The translations under genes and the position numbers were made by a program. From Pyrobaculum oguniense TE7 (lineage in GTDB: Archaea; Thermoproteota; Thermoprotei; Thermoproteales; Thermoproteaceae), in the NCBI GenBank assembly GCA_000247545.1, contig CP003316.1:2265233-2329232 (forward strand): a stretch of DNA of 64,000 bases, in the 5' to 3' direction. Shown piece by piece: positions 21,277 through 29,559 of the stretch. The notes under the pieces were generated by a model. It was not told the DNA's origin, ran no database searches, and saw only the letters and a program-made list of their open reading frames with translations. Within the stretch, counting starts at the first letter, position 1, and every line of letters starts with the position of its first letter.

Positions 21277-22098
21277 ATGCGTCTCGAAGTAAAGATCAGC
21301 GGACTGCCGCGGGACAAAAAGAACATCCTCGTGATGGCTTGCCCCGAGCCCTCGTTGGCAGGTGTCATAGCAGTTGAGTATCTAATAGATGCGCTTAAGA
21401 TGGAGGAGATAGGGGCAATTAAAATCACGGAGATGCCTCCAGTAATCGCCGTCGTCAACGGCGCGGCGAAACTGCCTCACAGGCTGTTCTACTCGAAAGA
21501 GGCGGGTATCCTTGCCATTAGGCAACACGTCCCCATACCGCCGCAGATCTACGCTGAGTTCATCCACAAGGTCCTAGATTGGGCCGAGGAAAACAAGGTA
21601 AAACTCGTGGTCTGCCTATCGGCCATGCCAGCCGCCGGCGAGAGGGAAAGTGAAAACGTCTACTTCGTCACGGAGGAGGGCCTAGTGGAGAAGTTTAAGC
21701 AGTACGGCTTCGAGCCTATAAAAGAAGCCACTGTGACCGGGCTCGAGGGGGCATACCTAGACGCTGTGCTCGGCAGGGGCATAGACGGCGCACTCATAAT
21801 CGCCGAGTCTAAGCTACTCACCGCCATAAAGAGGCTGGTAGACAGCGGCAAAATCGCCACCCACCGCGACGTGATGCTTATACTCAACGACCTGGTCGGG
21901 CGGGTCGGCCCCGACGTAGGCGCCGCGTTGAAGCTAATAAACGCCGTGGCCAAGCTCGCAGATATCCAAATAGACACGACAAAGTTGCAAGAACACGCAA
22001 CTAAGTACGCCTTCCTCATCGAGAAGAACATAGAGGCAATCTTAAAGCCGGCGGAGGCCATGGCGCCGGCGAGGCGCGAGGTGCCGCTGGTGTTCTAA
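21277..22098 (+). CDS. PAC2 domain protein (proteasome assembly chaperone family)
   Basis: This 273-residue protein has the PAC2 pattern: an N-terminal ILVMACPEPSLAGVIAVEYLIDAL, then ITEMPPVIAVVNG, then the ADP/AMP-like P-loop-free fold with FVTEEGLVEKFKQYG and DAVLGRGIDGALIIAES. Eukaryotic PAC1/2 and archaeal PbaA-type proteins help build proteasomes, so the role here is inferred by family. The ATG at 21277 is about 26 bp from the GAAATATTTAATAC box. Its last 59 bp, including the stop codon, recur at 23150-23208 in a degenerate form (see findings). Confidence 0.85.
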   Translation: MRLEVKISGLPRDKKNILVMACPEPSLAGVIAVEYLIDALKMEEIGAIKITEMPPVIAVVNGAAKLPHRLFYSKEAGILAIRQHVPIPPQIYAEFIHKVLDWAEENKVKLVVCLSAMPAAGERESENVYFVTEEGLVEKFKQYGFEPIKEATVTGLEGAYLDAVLGRGIDGALIIAESKLLTAIKRLVDSGKIATHRDVMLILNDLVGRVGPDVGAALKLINAVAKLADIQIDTTKLQEHATKYAFLIEKNIEAILKPAEAMAPARREVPLVF

Positions 22099-22424: not shown

Positions 22425-22892
22425 GTGGAGAACATAATGGCAGAGGCCAGGAAGAGGGGAATAGACGTGGAATATGTCATCATTTCAGCCCTATCAAAGG
22501 CCATGGGGGCAGACCCGGCTGAAGAGGCAAAGGCCCATTTAGAGTTGGCAATGCGGTATTTAGAAGAGGCGGAGAAATTAGAGGATCCCGTACAGGCCTC
22601 TGTAAAGGCGTATAAGGCCTTTGAGCAGGCGGTTAAGGCCGCCGCGATTTATCTGGGTCTCGAAGAGGCGAGGCAAGCAGAACGAGAGGGCCGGTGGAGG
22701 GCCGCTACTTTTTTCTCCGCCATTAAGAAGTTGGAGAAGAAATTCGGCATAGAATTTCGCCTAGCCGCACGGGAGGCTTGGTTTCTCCACGTAGAAGGGT
22801 TTCACGAGGGGAGACTAAGTCTTGAAGAGGTGAAAGAGAGCGTAACATATGTGAGGCGCGGGATCAACCTCGTGGCCGTAGCGGTGCGCTGA
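22425..22892 (+). CDS. PaREP1 family protein
   Basis: This 155-residue helical protein belongs to the PaREP1/PaREP8 family, a lineage-specific multicopy family in Pyrobaculum and relatives. Diagnostic blocks are AHLELAMRYLEEAEKLEDPVQASVKAYKA, EQAVKAAAIYLGL, EGRWRAATFFSAIKKLEKKFG and AWFLHVEGFHEGRLS, which resemble HEPN-like helical bundles. Function is unknown. The GTG start lies about 23 bp from a box A. It sits between the true and the displaced copies of the PAC2 3' end, which suggests it arrived with, or is the cargo of, an insertion. Confidence 0.85.
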   Translation: MENIMAEARKRGIDVEYVIISALSKAMGADPAEEAKAHLELAMRYLEEAEKLEDPVQASVKAYKAFEQAVKAAAIYLGLEEARQAEREGRWRAATFFSAIKKLEKKFGIEFRLAAREAWFLHVEGFHEGRLSLEEVKESVTYVRRGINLVAVAVR

Positions 22893-23149: not shown

Positions 23150-23208
23150 TCTTCAAGCCCGCAGAGGCCGTGGCGGCGAAGGGGCCAGAGGTGCCGCTGG
23201 TGTTCTAA
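23150..23208 (+). pseudogene. Displaced, degenerate copy of the PAC2 gene 3' end
   Basis: These 59 bp align without gaps to the last 59 bp of the PAC2 gene (22040-22098), with about ten mismatches. The final 21 bp, including the stop codon, are identical (22078-22098 versus 23188-23208). The peptide reads LFKPAEAVAAKGPEVPLVF, against ILKPAEAMAPARREVPLVF in the intact gene. The frame is closed just upstream by TGA, so this is only a tail. It lies directly before the rpl5 promoter. Confidence 0.8.
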
Positions 23209-24038: not shown

Positions 24039-24545
24039 ATGCTAGTGGTTGCCATTTCAGACAGCCATGACAACGTCGTAGCTATTAGGCGGGTTGGTGA
24101 GGAGGCGAGGCGCAGGGGGGTTAAGCTGATCCTGCACGCCGGCGACTGGGTATCGCCATTTGCCGCTAGGTTTTTAAGGGAGGCGGTGGGCGAGGGGGTA
24201 AGGATAGTTGGCGTATGGGGCAACAACGAGGGGGAGAGACCCTATTTTCTAGAAACGGCGCGGAAATACGGCGTTGAAATCGCTGGCGACGCCGCGGAGC
24301 TGGAGGTCAGCGGCAGGAAAATAGCGGTGTACCACGGCACATCGCCAGTGTTGCTGAGGGCGTTGGCTGAGTCCGGCCTCTACGACGTGGTGATCTACGG
24401 CCACACCCACCAAGCCTCGCTGGAGAGGAGGGGGAGGACGCTGGTGGTGAACCCCGGGGAGCTGTGCGGTTGCCTAACCGGCAGGTCGAGCTACGCCCTT
24501 ATAGACTTGGCGAAGCTGGAGGCCGATTTGGTATTTCTCACGTGA
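24039..24545 (+). CDS. Phosphodiesterase, YfcE/MJ0936 metallophosphatase family
   Basis: This 168-residue dimetal phosphoesterase has all metal-ligand blocks: SDSHDN, HAGDWV, GNNEG, YHGTSP and YGHTHQ. Archaeal relatives such as MJ0936 hydrolyse phosphodiesters in vitro; the natural substrate is unknown. The ATG lies about 24 bp from a TTTTTTAATC box (about 24010-24019). The stop overlaps the next gene's GTG (GTGA), so the two are an operon. Confidence 0.9.
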   Translation: MLVVAISDSHDNVVAIRRVGEEARRRGVKLILHAGDWVSPFAARFLREAVGEGVRIVGVWGNNEGERPYFLETARKYGVEIAGDAAELEVSGRKIAVYHGTSPVLLRALAESGLYDVVIYGHTHQASLERRGRTLVVNPGELCGCLTGRSSYALIDLAKLEADLVFLT

Positions 24546-25786
24546 AGTGGACTCCTGGAGAGCTGATATCCTTCACTGCCAAGGTTCTCTACGAAATAAG
24601 CAAAGGTCTTACTCTTGACTACGCTTTTCAAAAGGTAAAGAGGGGGTGGCGTGAGTTAGATAGCTTCAAGGTATTTTACGACGTGGTCTTCGACGCTGTG
24701 CGCCATTACTATTTTCTCCAATTCGCCGCTTCGAAGATGTTCGGCTCTTCTGGCGCAAAAGCCGTAGCTAAGGCGTGGTTTATTTTTAGGGCAGACTCTC
24801 TCCTCTACAACAAAGACATGGTTAACAGCGTGCGGAAACGGCTGTTAAAAAGGGCTCTGACAAAGCCGGACCACGTAATGGCGGCGTTGGAGGAGTTAAG
24901 GGAGGATCGCGCCAGATACTTCTCGGTGAAGTACAGCTATCACCCCAACATAGTGTCGACACTGCTGTCGCATTTCCCGCCGGATGAAGTGGAGAAGTTG
25001 CTAGAAGCGGGGAACCACACCTGGATTTGGCTGAGGATAAACACGCTGAAGGCGGACGTGGACAAGGCGTTGAGGCAGTTGGAGGCCGAGGCCGAGGTGG
25101 AGCCCCATCCTAAAATCCCCTTCGCCGTGTTGCTTAAATCAGCTAAGAGGCCTGTCCAGTACCTAGAGGCCGTGAGGCGGTTTGTGGCCGTTCCCCAAGA
25201 CCTGGCCTCAATATACGCCGTGCTTTCGCTTAGGCCAGAGCCCGGCGACAGGATAATCGACCTCGCCGCGGCGCCGGGGATGAAGACCAGCCTAATAGCC
25301 CAGCTAGCGGAGGGAAGGGCCAAGATCGTTGCCGTGGACCTCTCGGCGAAGCGTGTAGCGAGGATGAGGCACCTCCTGAAAAACCTAGGCGCAGGAGACT
25401 TCGTAGAGGTCGTCAGGGGAGACTCCCGGGTCTTAAAGACAAGGAAGTTCGACAAGGCGCTTCTAGACGCGCCTTGCACCTCCAGCGGGGCCTTTACAAA
25501 GGAGCCCGCCGTGAAGATATACCCCCGTGTCGAGGAGGCGCCGAGGTACTCCGCCTTGCAGAAAGCCCTCCTCAAAAACGCATTGGCGCTGGCAGAGGAG
25601 GTTGTGTACGCCGTCTGTAGCATACTTCCACAAGAAGGCGAAGAGGTGGCGGCGTCTGCCGGCGCAGAGGTGGAAAAGCCCCATCCTGACCTCGCCCCGT
25701 CGTACACGCCCGGCGTCGGCGGGAGAACCTTCCCCCACATCCACAGAAGCGAGGCCTTCTTCATAGCGCGTCTCAGGAAAAGATAG
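24542..25786 (+). CDS. RNA 5-methylcytosine methyltransferase (NOL1/NOP2/Sun, RsmB family)
   Basis: This SAM-dependent methyltransferase of about 414 residues targets rRNA or tRNA. It has an N-terminal NusB-like helical region, then motif I DLAAAPGMKTS, motif IV DAPCTSSGAF with the release cysteine, and motif VI AVCSILPQEGEE with the nucleophilic cysteine. The frame is open upstream to 24464, but the GTG at 24542 in a GTGA overlap with the phosphodiesterase stop is the natural start. The last part of its coding sequence (25733-25777) recurs at 28704-28748 with 43 of 45 identical bases (see findings). Confidence 0.9.
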   Translation: MKWTPGELISFTAKVLYEISKGLTLDYAFQKVKRGWRELDSFKVFYDVVFDAVRHYYFLQFAASKMFGSSGAKAVAKAWFIFRADSLLYNKDMVNSVRKRLLKRALTKPDHVMAALEELREDRARYFSVKYSYHPNIVSTLLSHFPPDEVEKLLEAGNHTWIWLRINTLKADVDKALRQLEAEAEVEPHPKIPFAVLLKSAKRPVQYLEAVRRFVAVPQDLASIYAVLSLRPEPGDRIIDLAAAPGMKTSLIAQLAEGRAKIVAVDLSAKRVARMRHLLKNLGAGDFVEVVRGDSRVLKTRKFDKALLDAPCTSSGAFTKEPAVKIYPRVEEAPRYSALQKALLKNALALAEEVVYAVCSILPQEGEEVAASAGAEVEKPHPDLAPSYTPGVGGRTFPHIHRSEAFFIARLRKR

Positions 25787-25948
25787 GCGTACGCCACCCG
25801 CGTCTTAGGTAGAGGAACTGTGGTTGACCGCGACAAGTACTAGAGGTGGACGCGGGGTCTACTCCGTGGCCTACAAGCGCCAATTATAATGCCATGCGCT
25901 TAGGCCCGCCTCAAGGCGCGACATGCGGCGGGGTTCGCGCCGTGGGCG

Positions 25949-26707
25949 CTACTTTGGGCGTCGGGGCGGCGTTTTGTCAACACCGCGTGCGTACATCTTC
26001 CAGACTATCCAAGCCACGGGTATGAGGGTTGCAACGCCCTGAAGACCTACAGGTTCCCAAAGCCACCTCACATCCGCGAGCTGTGGATACAGCATATAGT
26101 ACGTAGGCGCCCACGAGTTGACGGCCCCGTGTAGCAATGCGGCCCCCCATACGCCGTATTGTAAATAAGCCGCTGTGTGGAGTAGGGAGAGGAGAATAGT
26201 GGGAAGGACGAAGAGGAGCACGCCCTCAACGCGCCAAGACCAGCCGTACTCATAGCCGAGTAGAATAGCCGGCGTGTGCCAAAAACCCCACACAACCCCC
26301 ACCATGAGAGACGCCTTGAAGTAGCCAAATCTCTGGGCGAGTGCTGGCAGTAAATAGCCCCGCCAGCCGTACTCCTCGCCGAAGGCGCCTATAAATGCCA
26401 CGGCCGCCGGCATAAAAGGAGCTGTGAGCAAGTACATTAAGTGGCTCGGCGCCGCCTGGGGCTGGACGGGCTGAAATGGCAACGTGGAGACCACCAATAG
26501 GGCGACCCACAGCGCGATCGGCCACACAGACTTCCAGTAACTTATCCTCCTCCCGGCGGTCAGCGCCGGGGGCGGGGGCCTAAACCCCTCAGCAAGCGCG
26601 CCCAGTGCAGGCGCCCACATAGCGGCGAACAGCCAGAAGTAGGAGGTGGGATGGGCAAACTGAAAAGCCCACCCTAGGCCGAAGGTCACCGCTATAAACC
26701 TGCGCAT
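25949..26707 (-). CDS. CPBP family intramembrane metalloprotease
   Basis: This 252-residue protein has about seven or eight hydrophobic segments and the three CPBP (CAAX/Abi) motifs: EEYGWRG with paired glutamates, WGFWHTP with His, and LLHGAVNS with His. Members process prenylated or bacteriocin-type peptides and often serve as self-immunity proteins. The start overlaps the upstream PH-like gene by 16 bp, so they are one transcript. It lies between the true and displaced 3' ends of the methyltransferase gene, together with a radical SAM gene. Confidence 0.85.
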   Translation of the reverse strand: MRRFIAVTFGLGWAFQFAHPTSYFWLFAAMWAPALGALAEGFRPPPPALTAGRRISYWKSVWPIALWVALLVVSTLPFQPVQPQAAPSHLMYLLTAPFMPAAVAFIGAFGEEYGWRGYLLPALAQRFGYFKASLMVGVVWGFWHTPAILLGYEYGWSWRVEGVLLFVLPTILLSLLHTAAYLQYGVWGAALLHGAVNSWAPTYYMLYPQLADVRWLWEPVGLQGVATLIPVAWIVWKMYARGVDKTPPRRPK

Positions 26708-27204
26708 ACCTCCCTATCCCCCTCTTCGCAACATATTACATACCGCTTACCGTCTACCTCTACCACTATCCACTCGTCGGAACAGGAAGGCGTAGAAAAC
26801 GCGACCGCCCTCCCAAACGCAGTGGAGCAGATGCCGTAAAGAGACCAGAGGTCGAGGCGCCATCCCACGGGGCACATGTAGATGTAGTTCAGGAGCTCCG
26901 ACGTGGAGAACTTCTTCACCACCCTGAAGCCTGTGATTCTCTTAGTAAGCCAACGGGTCTTGAGGATAATCTCGCCGCGCCTCACAACAACGCGGACAGG
27001 CTCCAACAAAGGGATAGTAGCCATCGCCGCCAGCCCCGTTCCCATGACCAGATAAGGCCCTAGGCGCGCCAGAGGCTCTTTTGGAGGATTTACGCTGTGC
27101 AAATAGAAGAGGAAGATCCCCGAAGCCGTTGCACCGGCTGAGATTAGGAAAAAGACAACAAGCGAAATCTTGTGTTTCCTCCACCTGCGCTGGGCCATCG
27201 ACAT
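26692..27204 (-). CDS. Two-TM membrane protein with a bacterial-PH-like domain
   Basis: This 170-residue protein begins with a basic N-terminus, followed by two transmembrane helices (about residues 14-33 and 46-66). A soluble domain then starts with VRVVVRRGEIILKTRWLTKRITGFRVV, a strand pattern like bacterial PH domains (YdbS/YdbT type). The tail is cysteine-containing (CSDEWIVVEVDGKRYVICCEEGDREVC). The family assignment is by pattern and tentative. It is cotranscribed with the CPBP protease and divergent from a Tat-signal protein. Small PH-like membrane proteins are known in some bacteriocin-immunity loci, which gives the neighbourhood some meaning. Confidence 0.6.
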   Translation of the reverse strand: MSMAQRRWRKHKISLVVFFLISAGATASGIFLFYLHSVNPPKEPLARLGPYLVMGTGLAAMATIPLLEPVRVVVRRGEIILKTRWLTKRITGFRVVKKFSTSELLNYIYMCPVGWRLDLWSLYGICSTAFGRAVAFSTPSCSDEWIVVEVDGKRYVICCEEGDREVCAGL

Positions 27205-27234
27205 GAAAACTTAAAAATTCGCATAAAAAACTTT

Positions 27235-27633
27235 ATGGCGGAAGAGGTTACCTCCCAAAGAAATTCGGAAAGAAACTACGAAGATTTGATAAAGAGACGT
27301 GAGGCGATTCAGTGTATTGCATCAGCCGGGTTGTTGGCATTGTCCATAAACCCAATATTGGCGATGGCTTTTGCTCCACGGGATGTATCGGGCGCACAAC
27401 CAGTTGACAGAGTAGTTGTAGATTTCATGGAAAAAGAGAAGTGGAAAGATGATAGTACAGATGTATACTACATAAAGATGCAAGTCACTACTAATCAGCA
27501 AAAATCTACAGTAATAGGCTTCGTCGTACGCGATGTGGCAAGCGACTTCTTGCCGCCGCTTATAGTAATTGGCGAAGGCGAAAAAGATGCAAATATTCTT
27601 GCTTTTAGTTTTTCTACTTACTTACAGGTGTGA
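27235..27633 (+). CDS. Small exported protein with Tat-like signal, unknown function
   Basis: This 132-residue protein starts at ATG 27235, about 20 bp after an A/T box shared with the divergent PH-like gene. Residues 18-45 read KRREAIQ followed by a hydrophobic run CIASAGLLALSINPILAMAFA. This matches a twin-arginine (Tat) signal preceded by a 17-residue polar leader. The mature part is about 85 residues, beta-rich and acidic. DNA here is more AT-rich than in its surroundings. Its 3' end overlaps the radical SAM start by about 47 bp in another frame. No family was recognised. Confidence 0.6.
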   Translation: MAEEVTSQRNSERNYEDLIKRREAIQCIASAGLLALSINPILAMAFAPRDVSGAQPVDRVVVDFMEKEKWKDDSTDVYYIKMQVTTNQQKSTVIGFVVRDVASDFLPPLIVIGEGEKDANILAFSFSTYLQV

Positions 27634-28538
27634 TTTTTTGTGTGCTCACTGTAGTGTTGGGGCTGGGCCGCATCGTGGTGAGGTTTTGCCGAGAGAGCTT
27701 ATGATTAAGGCAATCAAGGAGGCTTACGACGTTGCATCTATCAGGTTGGTAGTTTTTACTGGCGGCGAGCCGACTCTCTTTTTAGATCAGGTAGTGGAAG
27801 GTGTAAAGTTAGCTTCAGAGCTTGGTTTTTCAACTAGGCTTGTGACTAACGGGTGGTGGGCTACGACGTATGAAAAGGCATATGAAATCTTATCTAGGCT
27901 GAAATCTGCCGGTCTTAAAGAGCTTAATATAAGCTATGACAGATTCCATGATCCTTGGCTGGCCAAGTTTGGCAGGTTTACAAATGTGGTAAATGCGGTG
28001 AGAGCGACGCGGGAGCTGGGAATAGTTGCGCTAATAGGGGTTTTAAAGCTGGCCGATGAACGTCAGCCTACACGAGAGCTTATAAAAAAGAAGCTAGAAG
28101 AATTCGGGCTAGCAGATGTGATGGTTATAGAGGATTTCCCCGCTCGTATTGGCAGAGCTTCTCAGCTACCCGGCGAGCTGATACCTCGCAACGACAAGCT
28201 TCTTAACATGGGGTGTAACGAAGCTGGGGCTAGGCTCACCATCTCCTAATGGTGATGCCATGTATTGTTGCGGCCATCCAATAACCAGGAGTGAGGCACA
28301 GTGGTTTTTTAAAGTAGGCAATATCTCGCAAGACTCGCTTGTAGATATAGAAAAGAGAATTAGGAGAAACGCATTGGTTCTTGCATTAAGGTATGCCGGC
28401 CCTCTTGCTATATTAAGAGAACACGGCATTGAGTTAGAGGAAGATTTTAAAACACCGTGCGAGGTCTGTTATCACGTAGCAACAAGAGGGCATAGGCTTG
28501 ATAGGTCAAAGCTTATAAAGCTAGCCCGTTTAGATTAG
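27587..28538 (+). pseudogene. Radical SAM/SPASM enzyme gene, frameshifted
   Basis: The first part (27587-28249) has the cluster motif CDFLCAHC, then FTGGEPT for SAM binding, and ends GCNEAGARLTIS before a TAA. In another frame the text resumes immediately: PNGDAMYCCGHPI, followed by FKVGNI and FKTPCEVCYH to 28538. GARLTIS-PNGDAMYCCG is a standard SPASM junction, so the intact gene would be one chain of about 317 residues. A net 2-bp loss (or 1-bp gain) in the CTCCT run at about 28243-28249 splits it. It may be a true pseudogene, a sequencing error or a programmed frameshift. The neighbours (CPBP protease, small peptide gene) suggest a peptide-modifying role. Codon use is AT-shifted compared with flanking genes. 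Confidence 0.75.
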
Positions 28539-28539
28539 T

Positions 28540-28692
28540 GTGTTTGACGTAGTTGCTGTAGGCGTATTAGCCGGCTTGGCGGCGTATGTATACAACGAGA
28601 TCTATAAATTTGTAAAAAGCTCGCTCAAATTAGCCATTGCGGCGGCTGCTACGGCGTCGGCAATCGCCTTATTGCCTTATCTCATACGTTAA
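28540..28692 (+). CDS. Unannotated 50-residue hydrophobic peptide
   Basis: A GTG at 28540 follows the radical SAM stop by 1 bp and opens a frame of 50 codons ending TAA at 28690-28692. The peptide has two hydrophobic helices (FDVVAVGVLAGLAAYVY and LKLAIAAAATASAIALLPYL) joined by a charged link (NEIYKFVKSS). It is too short for standard length cut-offs. Tight coupling to a radical SAM gene suggests either a small membrane partner or a precursor peptide; this is inference. It contains no cysteine, so a thioether (sactipeptide) product is unlikely. Confidence 0.55.
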   Translation: MFDVVAVGVLAGLAAYVYNEIYKFVKSSLKLAIAAAATASAIALLPYLIR

Positions 28693-28703
28693 TGCATGCG
28701 TAT

Positions 28704-28748
28704 CCCCACATCCGCAGAAGCGAGGCCTTCTTCGTAGCGCGTCTCAGG
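28704..28748 (+). pseudogene. Displaced copy of the RNA methyltransferase gene 3' end
   Basis: These 45 bp match 25733-25777 within the m5C methyltransferase gene at 43 positions, with the coding frame kept. The copy reads PHIRRSEAFFVARLR and then meets a TAG stop; the intact gene reads PHIHRSEAFFIARLRKR. The distance between copies is 2,971 bp. Everything between is accessory (CPBP protease to the 50-residue peptide). Confidence 0.85.
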
Positions 28749-28789
28749 TAGAGCTGAAGCCCAGCTGTGTGTTGTATATATAACTGCAA

Positions 28790-29206
28790 ATGGGAAGGAT
28801 TGTGCTGGACTGCGATGAGTACTGGAGGTGGATGAGGCAGACCGAGCATACTTTACAGTCTATACGGGCTGACTTGGACATCGGGTCCTACTCATTGGCC
28901 TGCTTCAAGGCGCTACAAGCCGCTGAGTTTGCAACTAGGGCGTTGCTACGGGCGTTAGGGCGGCCTGCGTTTGGCCACAACCTAGTTGCGCTGTTTAACG
29001 AGTTGGCTGGGCTGTGCCCCTCAACTGGCGGGGAGTTGAGGTTCTGCGTCGGCTATCTGGATAAGATGTACCTAACGCCTAGGTACCCAGATGCCTTGAC
29101 CGAGGGCTTCCCCTACGAGCGGTATACGGAAGAGGAGGTGGCTAAGGCGCGGGAGTGCGCCGAGCAGGTAATCGGCTGGGTTAAGGGCTGTTCCCCATGT
29201 CGATAG
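28790..29206 (+). CDS. HEPN domain protein (probable toxin or RNase partner of MNT)
   Basis: This 138-residue helical protein carries the HEPN R-x4-H motif as RPAFGHNL at about residues 59-66. The preceding helix (SLACFKALQAAEFATRALLRAL) is typical of HEPN domains. HEPN proteins paired with minimal nucleotidyltransferases form toxin-antitoxin-like modules, in which the HEPN protein is an RNase neutralised by nucleotidylation. The ATG lies about 22 bp from a TATATATAAC box (about 28764-28773). It overlaps the MNT gene by 10 bp. Confidence 0.85.
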   Translation: MGRIVLDCDEYWRWMRQTEHTLQSIRADLDIGSYSLACFKALQAAEFATRALLRALGRPAFGHNLVALFNELAGLCPSTGGELRFCVGYLDKMYLTPRYPDALTEGFPYERYTEEEVAKARECAEQVIGWVKGCSPCR

Positions 29207-29559
29207 AGGAGATAATAAGAAAAAGGACGCGGGAGCGGGAGGAGGTAATTGAGGGAGTAAAGAGGTACGTGGAGGCGCTTAGGGCGAGGTGGGGCAAACT
29301 AACAGCCGTGCTCTACGGTTCGTACGCCAGGTGCGACTTTAATTTGTGGAGCGACATCGACGTGATAATAGTATCCGAGCGGTTTAGAGGCACAAACTTC
29401 GTGACTAGGTGTGTCGAGTTGTTCGACGCCCCGCCTAGGATGGAGGCGATCTGCTGGACGCCGGAAGAGGGGGCAAAGGCTCTGGAAAAACCTTGGTGGC
29501 GCGAGGCCTTAAAACACCGCGTGGTCCTAGCCGACGACTACGGCCTATTCTGCGAATAA
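29197..29559 (+). CDS. Minimal nucleotidyltransferase (MNT) partner of HEPN protein
   Basis: This 120-residue protein has the nucleotidyltransferase core motif GSYARCDFNLWSDIDVIIV, which gives GSxxR and the DxD metal ligands, at about residues 41-59. It resembles the antitoxin of HEPN/MNT modules. The N-terminal helix is highly charged (EEIIRKRTREREEVIEGVKRY). It overlaps the upstream HEPN gene, so expression is coupled. A strong hairpin follows its stop. Confidence 0.87.
   Translation: MSIEEIIRKRTREREEVIEGVKRYVEALRARWGKLTAVLYGSYARCDFNLWSDIDVIIVSERFRGTNFVTRCVELFDAPPRMEAICWTPEEGAKALEKPWWREALKHRVVLADDYGLFCE

What the first reader, a model, noticed from the sequence alone, without database searches (positions are those of the whole stretch)
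25733..28748. 3' end of the m5C methyltransferase gene recurs 3 kb away, bracketing an accessory island
25733-25777 and 28704-28748 match at 43 of 45 bases in the same orientation, and the coding frame is kept up to a stop codon. Only accessory genes lie between. This is what would be left if an element entered the end of a protein gene and supplied a replacement tail, as known integrases do at tRNA genes. A lost tandem paralogue is the main alternative. No integrase gene is present in the interval.
Basis: partly seen in the sequence, partly recalled or inferred. Interest (0 to 1): 0.85.

Follow-up and report, generated by a model that had tools for sequence, protein, structure and literature searches.

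The report
Displaced gene tail beside accessory cassette
In the hot-spring archaeon Pyrobaculum oguniense, the end of a housekeeping gene and the start of the toxin-like gene beside it occur twice, with a small accessory cassette between the copies; this looks like a scar of DNA spliced in by recombination, not of a virus-like integrase, and a neighbouring gene carries a cleaner scar of the same type.

Summary
The repeat is real: 25733-25777 and 28704-28748 match at 43 of 45 bases, in frame to a stop. It is also longer than reported. Behind the left copy lies a dead remnant of the HEPN gene that stands intact behind the right copy (25811-25982; alignment score 91.6, best of 150-300 shuffles 37.5). 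So the junction 'methyltransferase tail + HEPN start' is duplicated, about 276 bp on the right-hand copy.

Between the copies sits a decayed cassette found elsewhere in Thermoproteales. No held relative has HEPN, cassette or a second methyltransferase here. All eight with the region in reach have other genes, and the block most of them carry has moved 1.2 Mb away in this genome. No tyrosine integrase passes the family cut-off in this genome.

Three kilobases upstream, the end of a PAC2 gene also recurs, around a PaREP1 gene. There five relatives give the empty site, and the displaced copy resembles relatives more than the active one does.

Best reading: accessory DNA entered by recombination anchored in the core genes and pushed the old tails downstream. 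Tandem duplication and site-specific integration remain possible. Pyrobaculum arsenaticum, the decisive relative, was not available.

The parts
24542..25786 (+). RsmB/F-type m5C methyltransferase gene, intact (414 aa)
   Evidence: Pfam PF01189 E=2.9e-34; one close homologue in nine of ten other held Pyrobaculum genomes
25733..25777 (+). left copy of the repeated tail, inside the active methyltransferase gene
   Evidence: 43/45 identical to 28704-28748
25811..25982 (+). HEPN remnant: codons ~2-63 of a HEPN gene, same frame with two TAG stops, cut off at the RX4H motif
   Evidence: DNA local score 91.6 against HEPN 28790 versus 36.8-37.5 best shuffle and <=47.5 against all other loci held; protein score 68 in one frame
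25949..26707 (-). CPBP (Rce1-like) membrane protease gene; its last ~11 codons read antisense through the HEPN remnant, placing the cassette edge near 25983
   Evidence: PF02517 E=3.1e-14; overlap alignment and ORF
26692..27204 (-). membrane protein of the cassette (170 aa)
   Evidence: homologues beside the same genes in other loci
27235..27633 (+). cassette protein with Tat-signal-like N terminus, C-terminally truncated here
   Evidence: homologues in L077, L079 and other loci
27569..28249 (+). radical SAM protein, N-terminal part (frameshifted gene)
   Evidence: PF04055 E=5.3e-17; best NCBIfam TIGR04078 YydG-like, below cut-off
28260..28538 (+). radical SAM protein, C-terminal (SPASM-like) part in another frame
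   Evidence: aligns with the C terminus of the intact 337-aa homologue in P. aerophilum L077
28540..28692 (+). small membrane protein (50 aa), last gene of the cassette
   Evidence: same place and size as the 54-aa ORF in L077
28704..28748 (+). right copy of the tail, orphaned; stop codon at 28749-28751; forms a 19-codon ORF from ATG 28692
28704..28979 (+). full extent of the duplicated junction on the right (tail + spacer + HEPN codons 1-63)
28790..29206 (+). intact HEPN gene (RPAFGH = RX4H motif present)
   Evidence: PF05168 E=5.9e-25; sequence
29197..29559 (+). MNT (minimal nucleotidyltransferase) partner of HEPN
   Evidence: PF01909 E=6.5e-9
21277..22098 (+). PAC2-family gene; its last 59 nt (22040-22098) are the left copy of the second case
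   Evidence: PF09754 E=1.4e-32; repeat
22425..22892 (+). PaREP1 gene between the two PAC2 tails
   Evidence: PF05942 E=2.5e-25
23150..23208 (+). displaced PAC2 tail, next to the native promoter-like sequence of ribosomal protein L5 gene 23240-23779
   Evidence: 49/59 to the left copy, 48/59 to P. aerophilum (left copy 43/59); L5 PF00281/PF00673

Best explanation
The locus is a recombination scar. A version of the junction 'methyltransferase 3' end followed by HEPN' and accessory DNA was added next to another version of the same junction. The incoming DNA was anchored by homology in or near the core gene, and its other end joined without homology. The gene nearest the anchor kept a working tail; the other tail, with its HEPN-MNT pair, was left about 3 kb downstream. 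Shown: the double junction, the dead left HEPN, the intact right HEPN-MNT, a cassette that recurs elsewhere, no integrase, and a twin case at PAC2 with an empty site and a displaced ancestral-looking tail. Inferred: the import step, its direction, and one-sided homology (the process called homology-facilitated illegitimate recombination).
For: Double junction, not just a 45-bp repeat. The HEPN copies differ far more (71-76% identity in the best blocks) than the tails (96%), and the left HEPN keeps one reading frame over about 59 codons apart from two stops; this fits two alleles that diverged as genes before being joined better than one recent duplication. At PAC2: five relatives with PAC2 directly before the L5 gene; the copy beside the L5 gene is closer to P. 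aerophilum (48/59) than the active tail is (43/59). No tyrosine integrase above cut-off in the genome, while all 14 control genomes ring. The cassette recurs as a unit at unrelated loci. Precedent for displacement of old gene ends by anchored insertion: PMC5361080.
Against: No donor or empty site for the methyltransferase case was found. Sliding identity along the PAC2 and methyltransferase genes shows no clear crossover point. No microhomology could be shown at the outer joins because the donor is unknown. The process is documented in transformable bacteria; I found no archaeal report in the papers I searched. In a 0.8 Mb sample of this genome and 0.4 Mb of P. aerophilum I saw no further case at a core gene.
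Confidence: 0.48

Rival explanations
1. Tandem duplication. A segment with methyltransferase and HEPN(-MNT) was duplicated in place; the first HEPN decayed, and the second methyltransferase was almost wholly lost when the cassette entered, leaving 45 bp.
For: The junction is duplicated in order and orientation. Recent loss of a longer second copy kept similar by gene conversion would explain 96% identity in the tails beside an old HEPN divergence. A remnant of a tandem antitoxin duplication exists elsewhere in this genome (77899/78628).
Against: No relative has a second close methyltransferase. No further methyltransferase remnant lies upstream of the right copy, and no HEPN 3' or MNT remnant lies in the cassette. 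It needs several steps and does not explain the PAC2 twin with its clean empty site.
Confidence: 0.22
2. Site-specific integration at the 3' end of the methyltransferase gene by an element that brought a replacement tail; the integrase was lost or acted in trans.
For: Repeat length fits crenarchaeal att sites (29-69 bp, median 45), and integration into 3'-distal parts of archaeal protein genes is known (PMC6563490). Gene function is preserved. The PAC2 twin ends exactly at its stop codon.
Against: Similarity continues into HEPN, so the 45 bp is not the element boundary. No integrase in the interval; the only PF00589 match in the genome is sub-threshold, 23.9 bits, on the extrachromosomal element. 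The two loci use unrelated sequences. The PAC2 tails match at only 83%. Cassette relatives are not flanked by comparable repeats.
Confidence: 0.15
3. Long target duplication: the cassette was captured at a break whose ends were staggered by ~276 bp, or by template switching during repair, so that tail + HEPN start were copied on both sides.
For: The cassette edges fall exactly between HEPN codon ~63 (25983) and the right tail (28703), and the duplicated unit is one contiguous target stretch 28704-28979.
Against: Both parts would be equally old, but the tail differs by 2/45 while the HEPN part and spacer differ by roughly 25-45%. With 15-20% neutral change, two or fewer differences in 45 has p = 0.036-0.006. 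Duplications this long are not usual for transposases.
Confidence: 0.12

Closest known systems
Displacement of gene ends by homology-anchored insertion (Vibrio cholerae T6SS immunity arrays, Rhs loci; PMC5361080)
   Same: A conserved gene serves as anchor, new accessory DNA is added beside it, the old 3' part and its accessory partner are pushed downstream and kept; no integrase.
   Different: Here the anchors are housekeeping genes of a hyperthermophilic archaeon (an RNA methyltransferase and a PAC2 protein) and the cargo is HEPN/PaREP1 genes and a peptide-modification-like cassette.
Integrative elements in 3' ends of archaeal tRNA and protein genes (tyrosine recombinases, casposons; PMC6563490)
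   Same: Direct repeat at a gene's 3' end, gene function restored, repeat length in the crenarchaeal range.
   Different: No integrase or Cas1, no inverted ends seen, small inserts, repeat flanked by further homology, different sequence at the second locus.
Type VII HEPN-MNT toxin-antitoxin pairs
   Same: Adjacent overlapping HEPN and MNT genes with the RX4H motif and a GS...D.D motif.
   Different: Low similarity to the curated type VII models; a truncated relative sits 3 kb upstream.

Membership tests
Integrase-mediated island at a gene 3' end | direct repeat of att length restoring the gene end | tested here: met
   43/45, frame kept; crenarchaeal att 29-69 bp (PMC6563490)
Integrase-mediated island at a gene 3' end | repeat marks the element boundary (homology stops there) | tested here: not met
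   collinear HEPN remnant beyond the repeat
Integrase-mediated island at a gene 3' end | integrase in the element or genome | tested here: not met
   none in interval; no PF00589 above cut-off, one weak match on C2. Very divergent or serine/DDE enzymes were not searched.
Integrase-mediated island at a gene 3' end | empty site in relatives | tested here: inconclusive
   methyltransferase locus: relatives carry a different gene block; PAC2 locus: empty site in five relatives
Homology-anchored (HFIR-type) displacement scar | old gene end displaced downstream, resembling the ancestral sequence | tested here: met
   PAC2: displaced copy 48/59 versus active copy 43/59 to P. aerophilum. Only suggestive at 59 bp; not distinguishable at the methyltransferase.
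Homology-anchored (HFIR-type) displacement scar | mosaic core gene with a crossover point | tested here: inconclusive
   no clear shift along PAC2 or methyltransferase; donor unknown
Homology-anchored (HFIR-type) displacement scar | illegitimate join (microhomology) at the far end | not testable with these tools
   donor sequence unknown; junction bases listed
Tandem gene duplication with loss | second full methyltransferase in some relative, or further remnants | tested here: not met
HEPN-MNT toxin-antitoxin | HEPN and NTP_transf_2 domains above curated cut-off, adjacent | tested here: met
   88.1 vs 22 bits; 36.5 vs 21 bits
HEPN-MNT toxin-antitoxin | toxicity neutralised by MNT | not testable with these tools
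   needs expression assay
YydG epipeptide epimerase | score above TIGR04078 cut-off | tested here: not met
   104.5 bits for the intact homologue L077, 73.4 for the window copy, cut-off 300

The most novel reading that the evidence does not exclude
Pyrobaculum gains HEPN/PaREP1 and peptide-cassette genes by a recurrent, integrase-free process that adds accessory DNA exactly at the 3' ends of housekeeping genes and leaves displaced gene tails as a readable order of arrivals. Two such scars lie within 7 kb.
Probability: 0.2. Interest if true: 0.68.

Novelty: new variant of a known kind. Interest (0 to 1): 0.42.

Why it matters
How archaea without obvious integrases collect toxin-antitoxin, PaREP and peptide-modification genes at fixed chromosomal places is not well explained. 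Displaced gene tails are short but datable marks of such gains. Here one locus shows the empty site and the neighbouring one shows two alleles of a junction side by side. If close strains confirm it, gene gain at core-gene ends could be read from sequence and tested by recombination assays.

Tried and rejected
tRNA or tmRNA at the repeat: none in the window. An RNA gene under the repeat: no Rfam match there at E<=1. Chance repeat: rejected. Cassette carried by viruses: one viral-contig scan with the radical SAM protein found no relative. Donor arrangement PAC2-PaREP1 in relatives: no PaREP1 hit lies at the PAC2 locus of any relative. Named genome-contig scans: the protein scan gave no relative; the DNA pattern returned only Pyrobaculum sp. 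WP30. Other 3'-end flags in that survey: 15682/20076 falls in a doubtful ORF, more likely the start of a plus-strand gene, and 77899/78628 is a remnant of a tandem antitoxin.

Full report
Identity of the genome. The window is G000:C1:2265233-2329232 of an assembly of 2,436,033 + 16,887 bp. These are the published sizes of Pyrobaculum oguniense TE7; that paper reports about 96% nucleotide identity and wide synteny with P. arsenaticum (PMC3558965). P. arsenaticum did not turn up among the held genomes.

The observation. 25733-25777 and 28704-28748 match at 43 of 45 bases in the same orientation, and the frame runs to a stop in both. A search of the whole genome with 25700-25960 finds only these two places. 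The left copy is the end of an RsmB/F-type methyltransferase (PF01189).

The similarity does not end at the stop codons. After a short spacer, 25811-25982 aligns with the first ~63 codons of the HEPN gene at 28790 (score 91.6; best of 300 block shuffles 37.5; repeated; found again by blastn as 25903-25970 / 28897-28964). The remnant stays in one frame with two TAG stops and breaks off at the RX4H motif, so it is dead. Against the other loci held at that point it scores at most 47.5. Other HEPN family members score up to 83 against the intact HEPN over the same stretch, so the remnant's similarity to it is only at the level of a diverged allele or close paralogue. The shared order tail-spacer-HEPN is what ties the two copies together. 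The last ~11 codons of the CPBP gene run antisense through this remnant, which places the left edge of the inserted cassette near 25983; the right edge is 28703.

Relatives. Eight held relatives have the region downstream of the methyltransferase in reach. In seven it continues into a 379-aa gene, or DUF711/UPF0210 directly, or (P. neutrophilum- and P. islandicum-sized genomes) a 1.5-kb stretch, read out in the former as a 511-aa gene, before DUF711; then ACT and, in most, citrate synthase, and etfB-etfA. In one fragmented genome a proteasome gene follows. In none do HEPN, MNT, the cassette or a second methyltransferase tail lie there. In P. oguniense the 379-aa/DUF711/ACT/citrate synthase block sits at 1.076-1.080 Mb with no methyltransferase remnant beside it. 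Each genome with the gene has one close methyltransferase, so a lost full paralogue has no support; no other methyltransferase, HEPN 3' or MNT remnant was found in the cassette.

A twin case. The scan for direct repeats gave one other strong case in the window: the last 59 nt of the PAC2 gene (22040-22098) recur at 23150-23208 at 83%, with a PaREP1 gene between. In five relatives PAC2 is followed about 38 bp later by the ribosomal L5 gene, which is the empty site. The copy next to the L5 gene and its AT-rich promoter-like sequence matches P. aerophilum at 48/59, the active copy only at 43/59. The old tail was thus displaced and the active gene carries a more diverged one. P. calidifontis has an unrelated gene at the same place without a tail copy. 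A survey of 0.8 Mb of this genome and 0.4 Mb of P. aerophilum found no further case at a core gene, so the process is rare or these two are linked.

The cassette. CPBP protease and membrane protein on one strand, and Tat-signal-like protein, radical SAM protein and a 50-aa membrane protein on the other, recur together in whole or part in P. aerophilum (twice), another Pyrobaculum and three more distant Thermoproteales. Five of those loci have a small peptide gene just before the radical SAM gene with a polar N part and a C part that is 45-53% valine plus alanine. The nearest curated model is the YydG peptide epimerase, well below its cut-off. In the window the peptide gene is missing and the radical SAM gene is frameshifted, so this copy looks decayed.

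Mechanism. Integration by a site-specific integrase is known at 3' ends of archaeal protein genes, with att sites of 29-69 bp in Crenarchaeota (PMC6563490). Here the repeat is not the boundary, there is no integrase in the interval, and PF00589 gives no match above cut-off in the genome while all 14 control genomes ring. A long target duplication would make tail and HEPN copies equally old, but they differ by 4% and roughly 25-30%, with the spacer worse; at 15-20% neutral change two or fewer differences in 45 has p = 0.036-0.006. Joining of two versions of the same junction, with one end anchored by homology and the other joined without it, accounts for both loci and has a precedent in Vibrio T6SS and Rhs loci (PMC5361080). 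The import step is inferred. No crossover was visible along either core gene, and the donor is unknown.

Verdict. Observation confirmed and extended; interpretation partly supported (insertion yes as the leading reading, integrase-style replacement tail not supported). The finding is a small but informative scar of gene gain in an archaeon. It is not a new element class on present evidence.

Noticed in passing
window 25983-28703; L077:5999-9314; L079; L166; L167; L168: Conserved cassette in Thermoproteales: Tat-signal-like protein, small peptide with a valine/alanine-rich C-terminal part, YydG-like radical SAM/SPASM protein, 50-55-aa membrane protein, plus divergent membrane protein and often a CPBP protease. 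It looks like an archaeal peptide-modification (epipeptide-like) cluster; the window copy is decayed.
   Followed up: partly
window 22040-22098 and 23150-23208: 3' end of the PAC2 gene recurs 1.1 kb on, around a PaREP1 gene, with an empty site in five relatives. A cleaner case of the same pattern than the one reported.
   Followed up: yes
G000:C1:1075699-1079927 (L056): The citrate synthase-ACT-DUF711-379aa block, normally between methyltransferase and etfB, sits about 1.2 Mb away in this genome, intact and in inverted order.
   Followed up: partly
window 28692-28751: The orphan tail forms a 19-codon ORF (MHAYPHIRRSEAFFVARLR) whose ATG overlaps the stop codon of the preceding small gene (TAATG).
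   Followed up: no
window 28240-28260: Single-base frameshift splits the radical SAM gene; real decay or sequencing error.
   Followed up: no
L049 6201-7511 (P. calidifontis-sized genome): An unrelated ~1.3-kb gene is inserted between PAC2 and the L5 gene, without a tail copy: the same spot was used independently.
   Followed up: partly
L080 2500-8500 and L081 6000-7260: HEPN genes lie next to CPBP protease genes at other loci too; in P. aerophilum HEPN and MNT converge on a CPBP gene.
   Followed up: no
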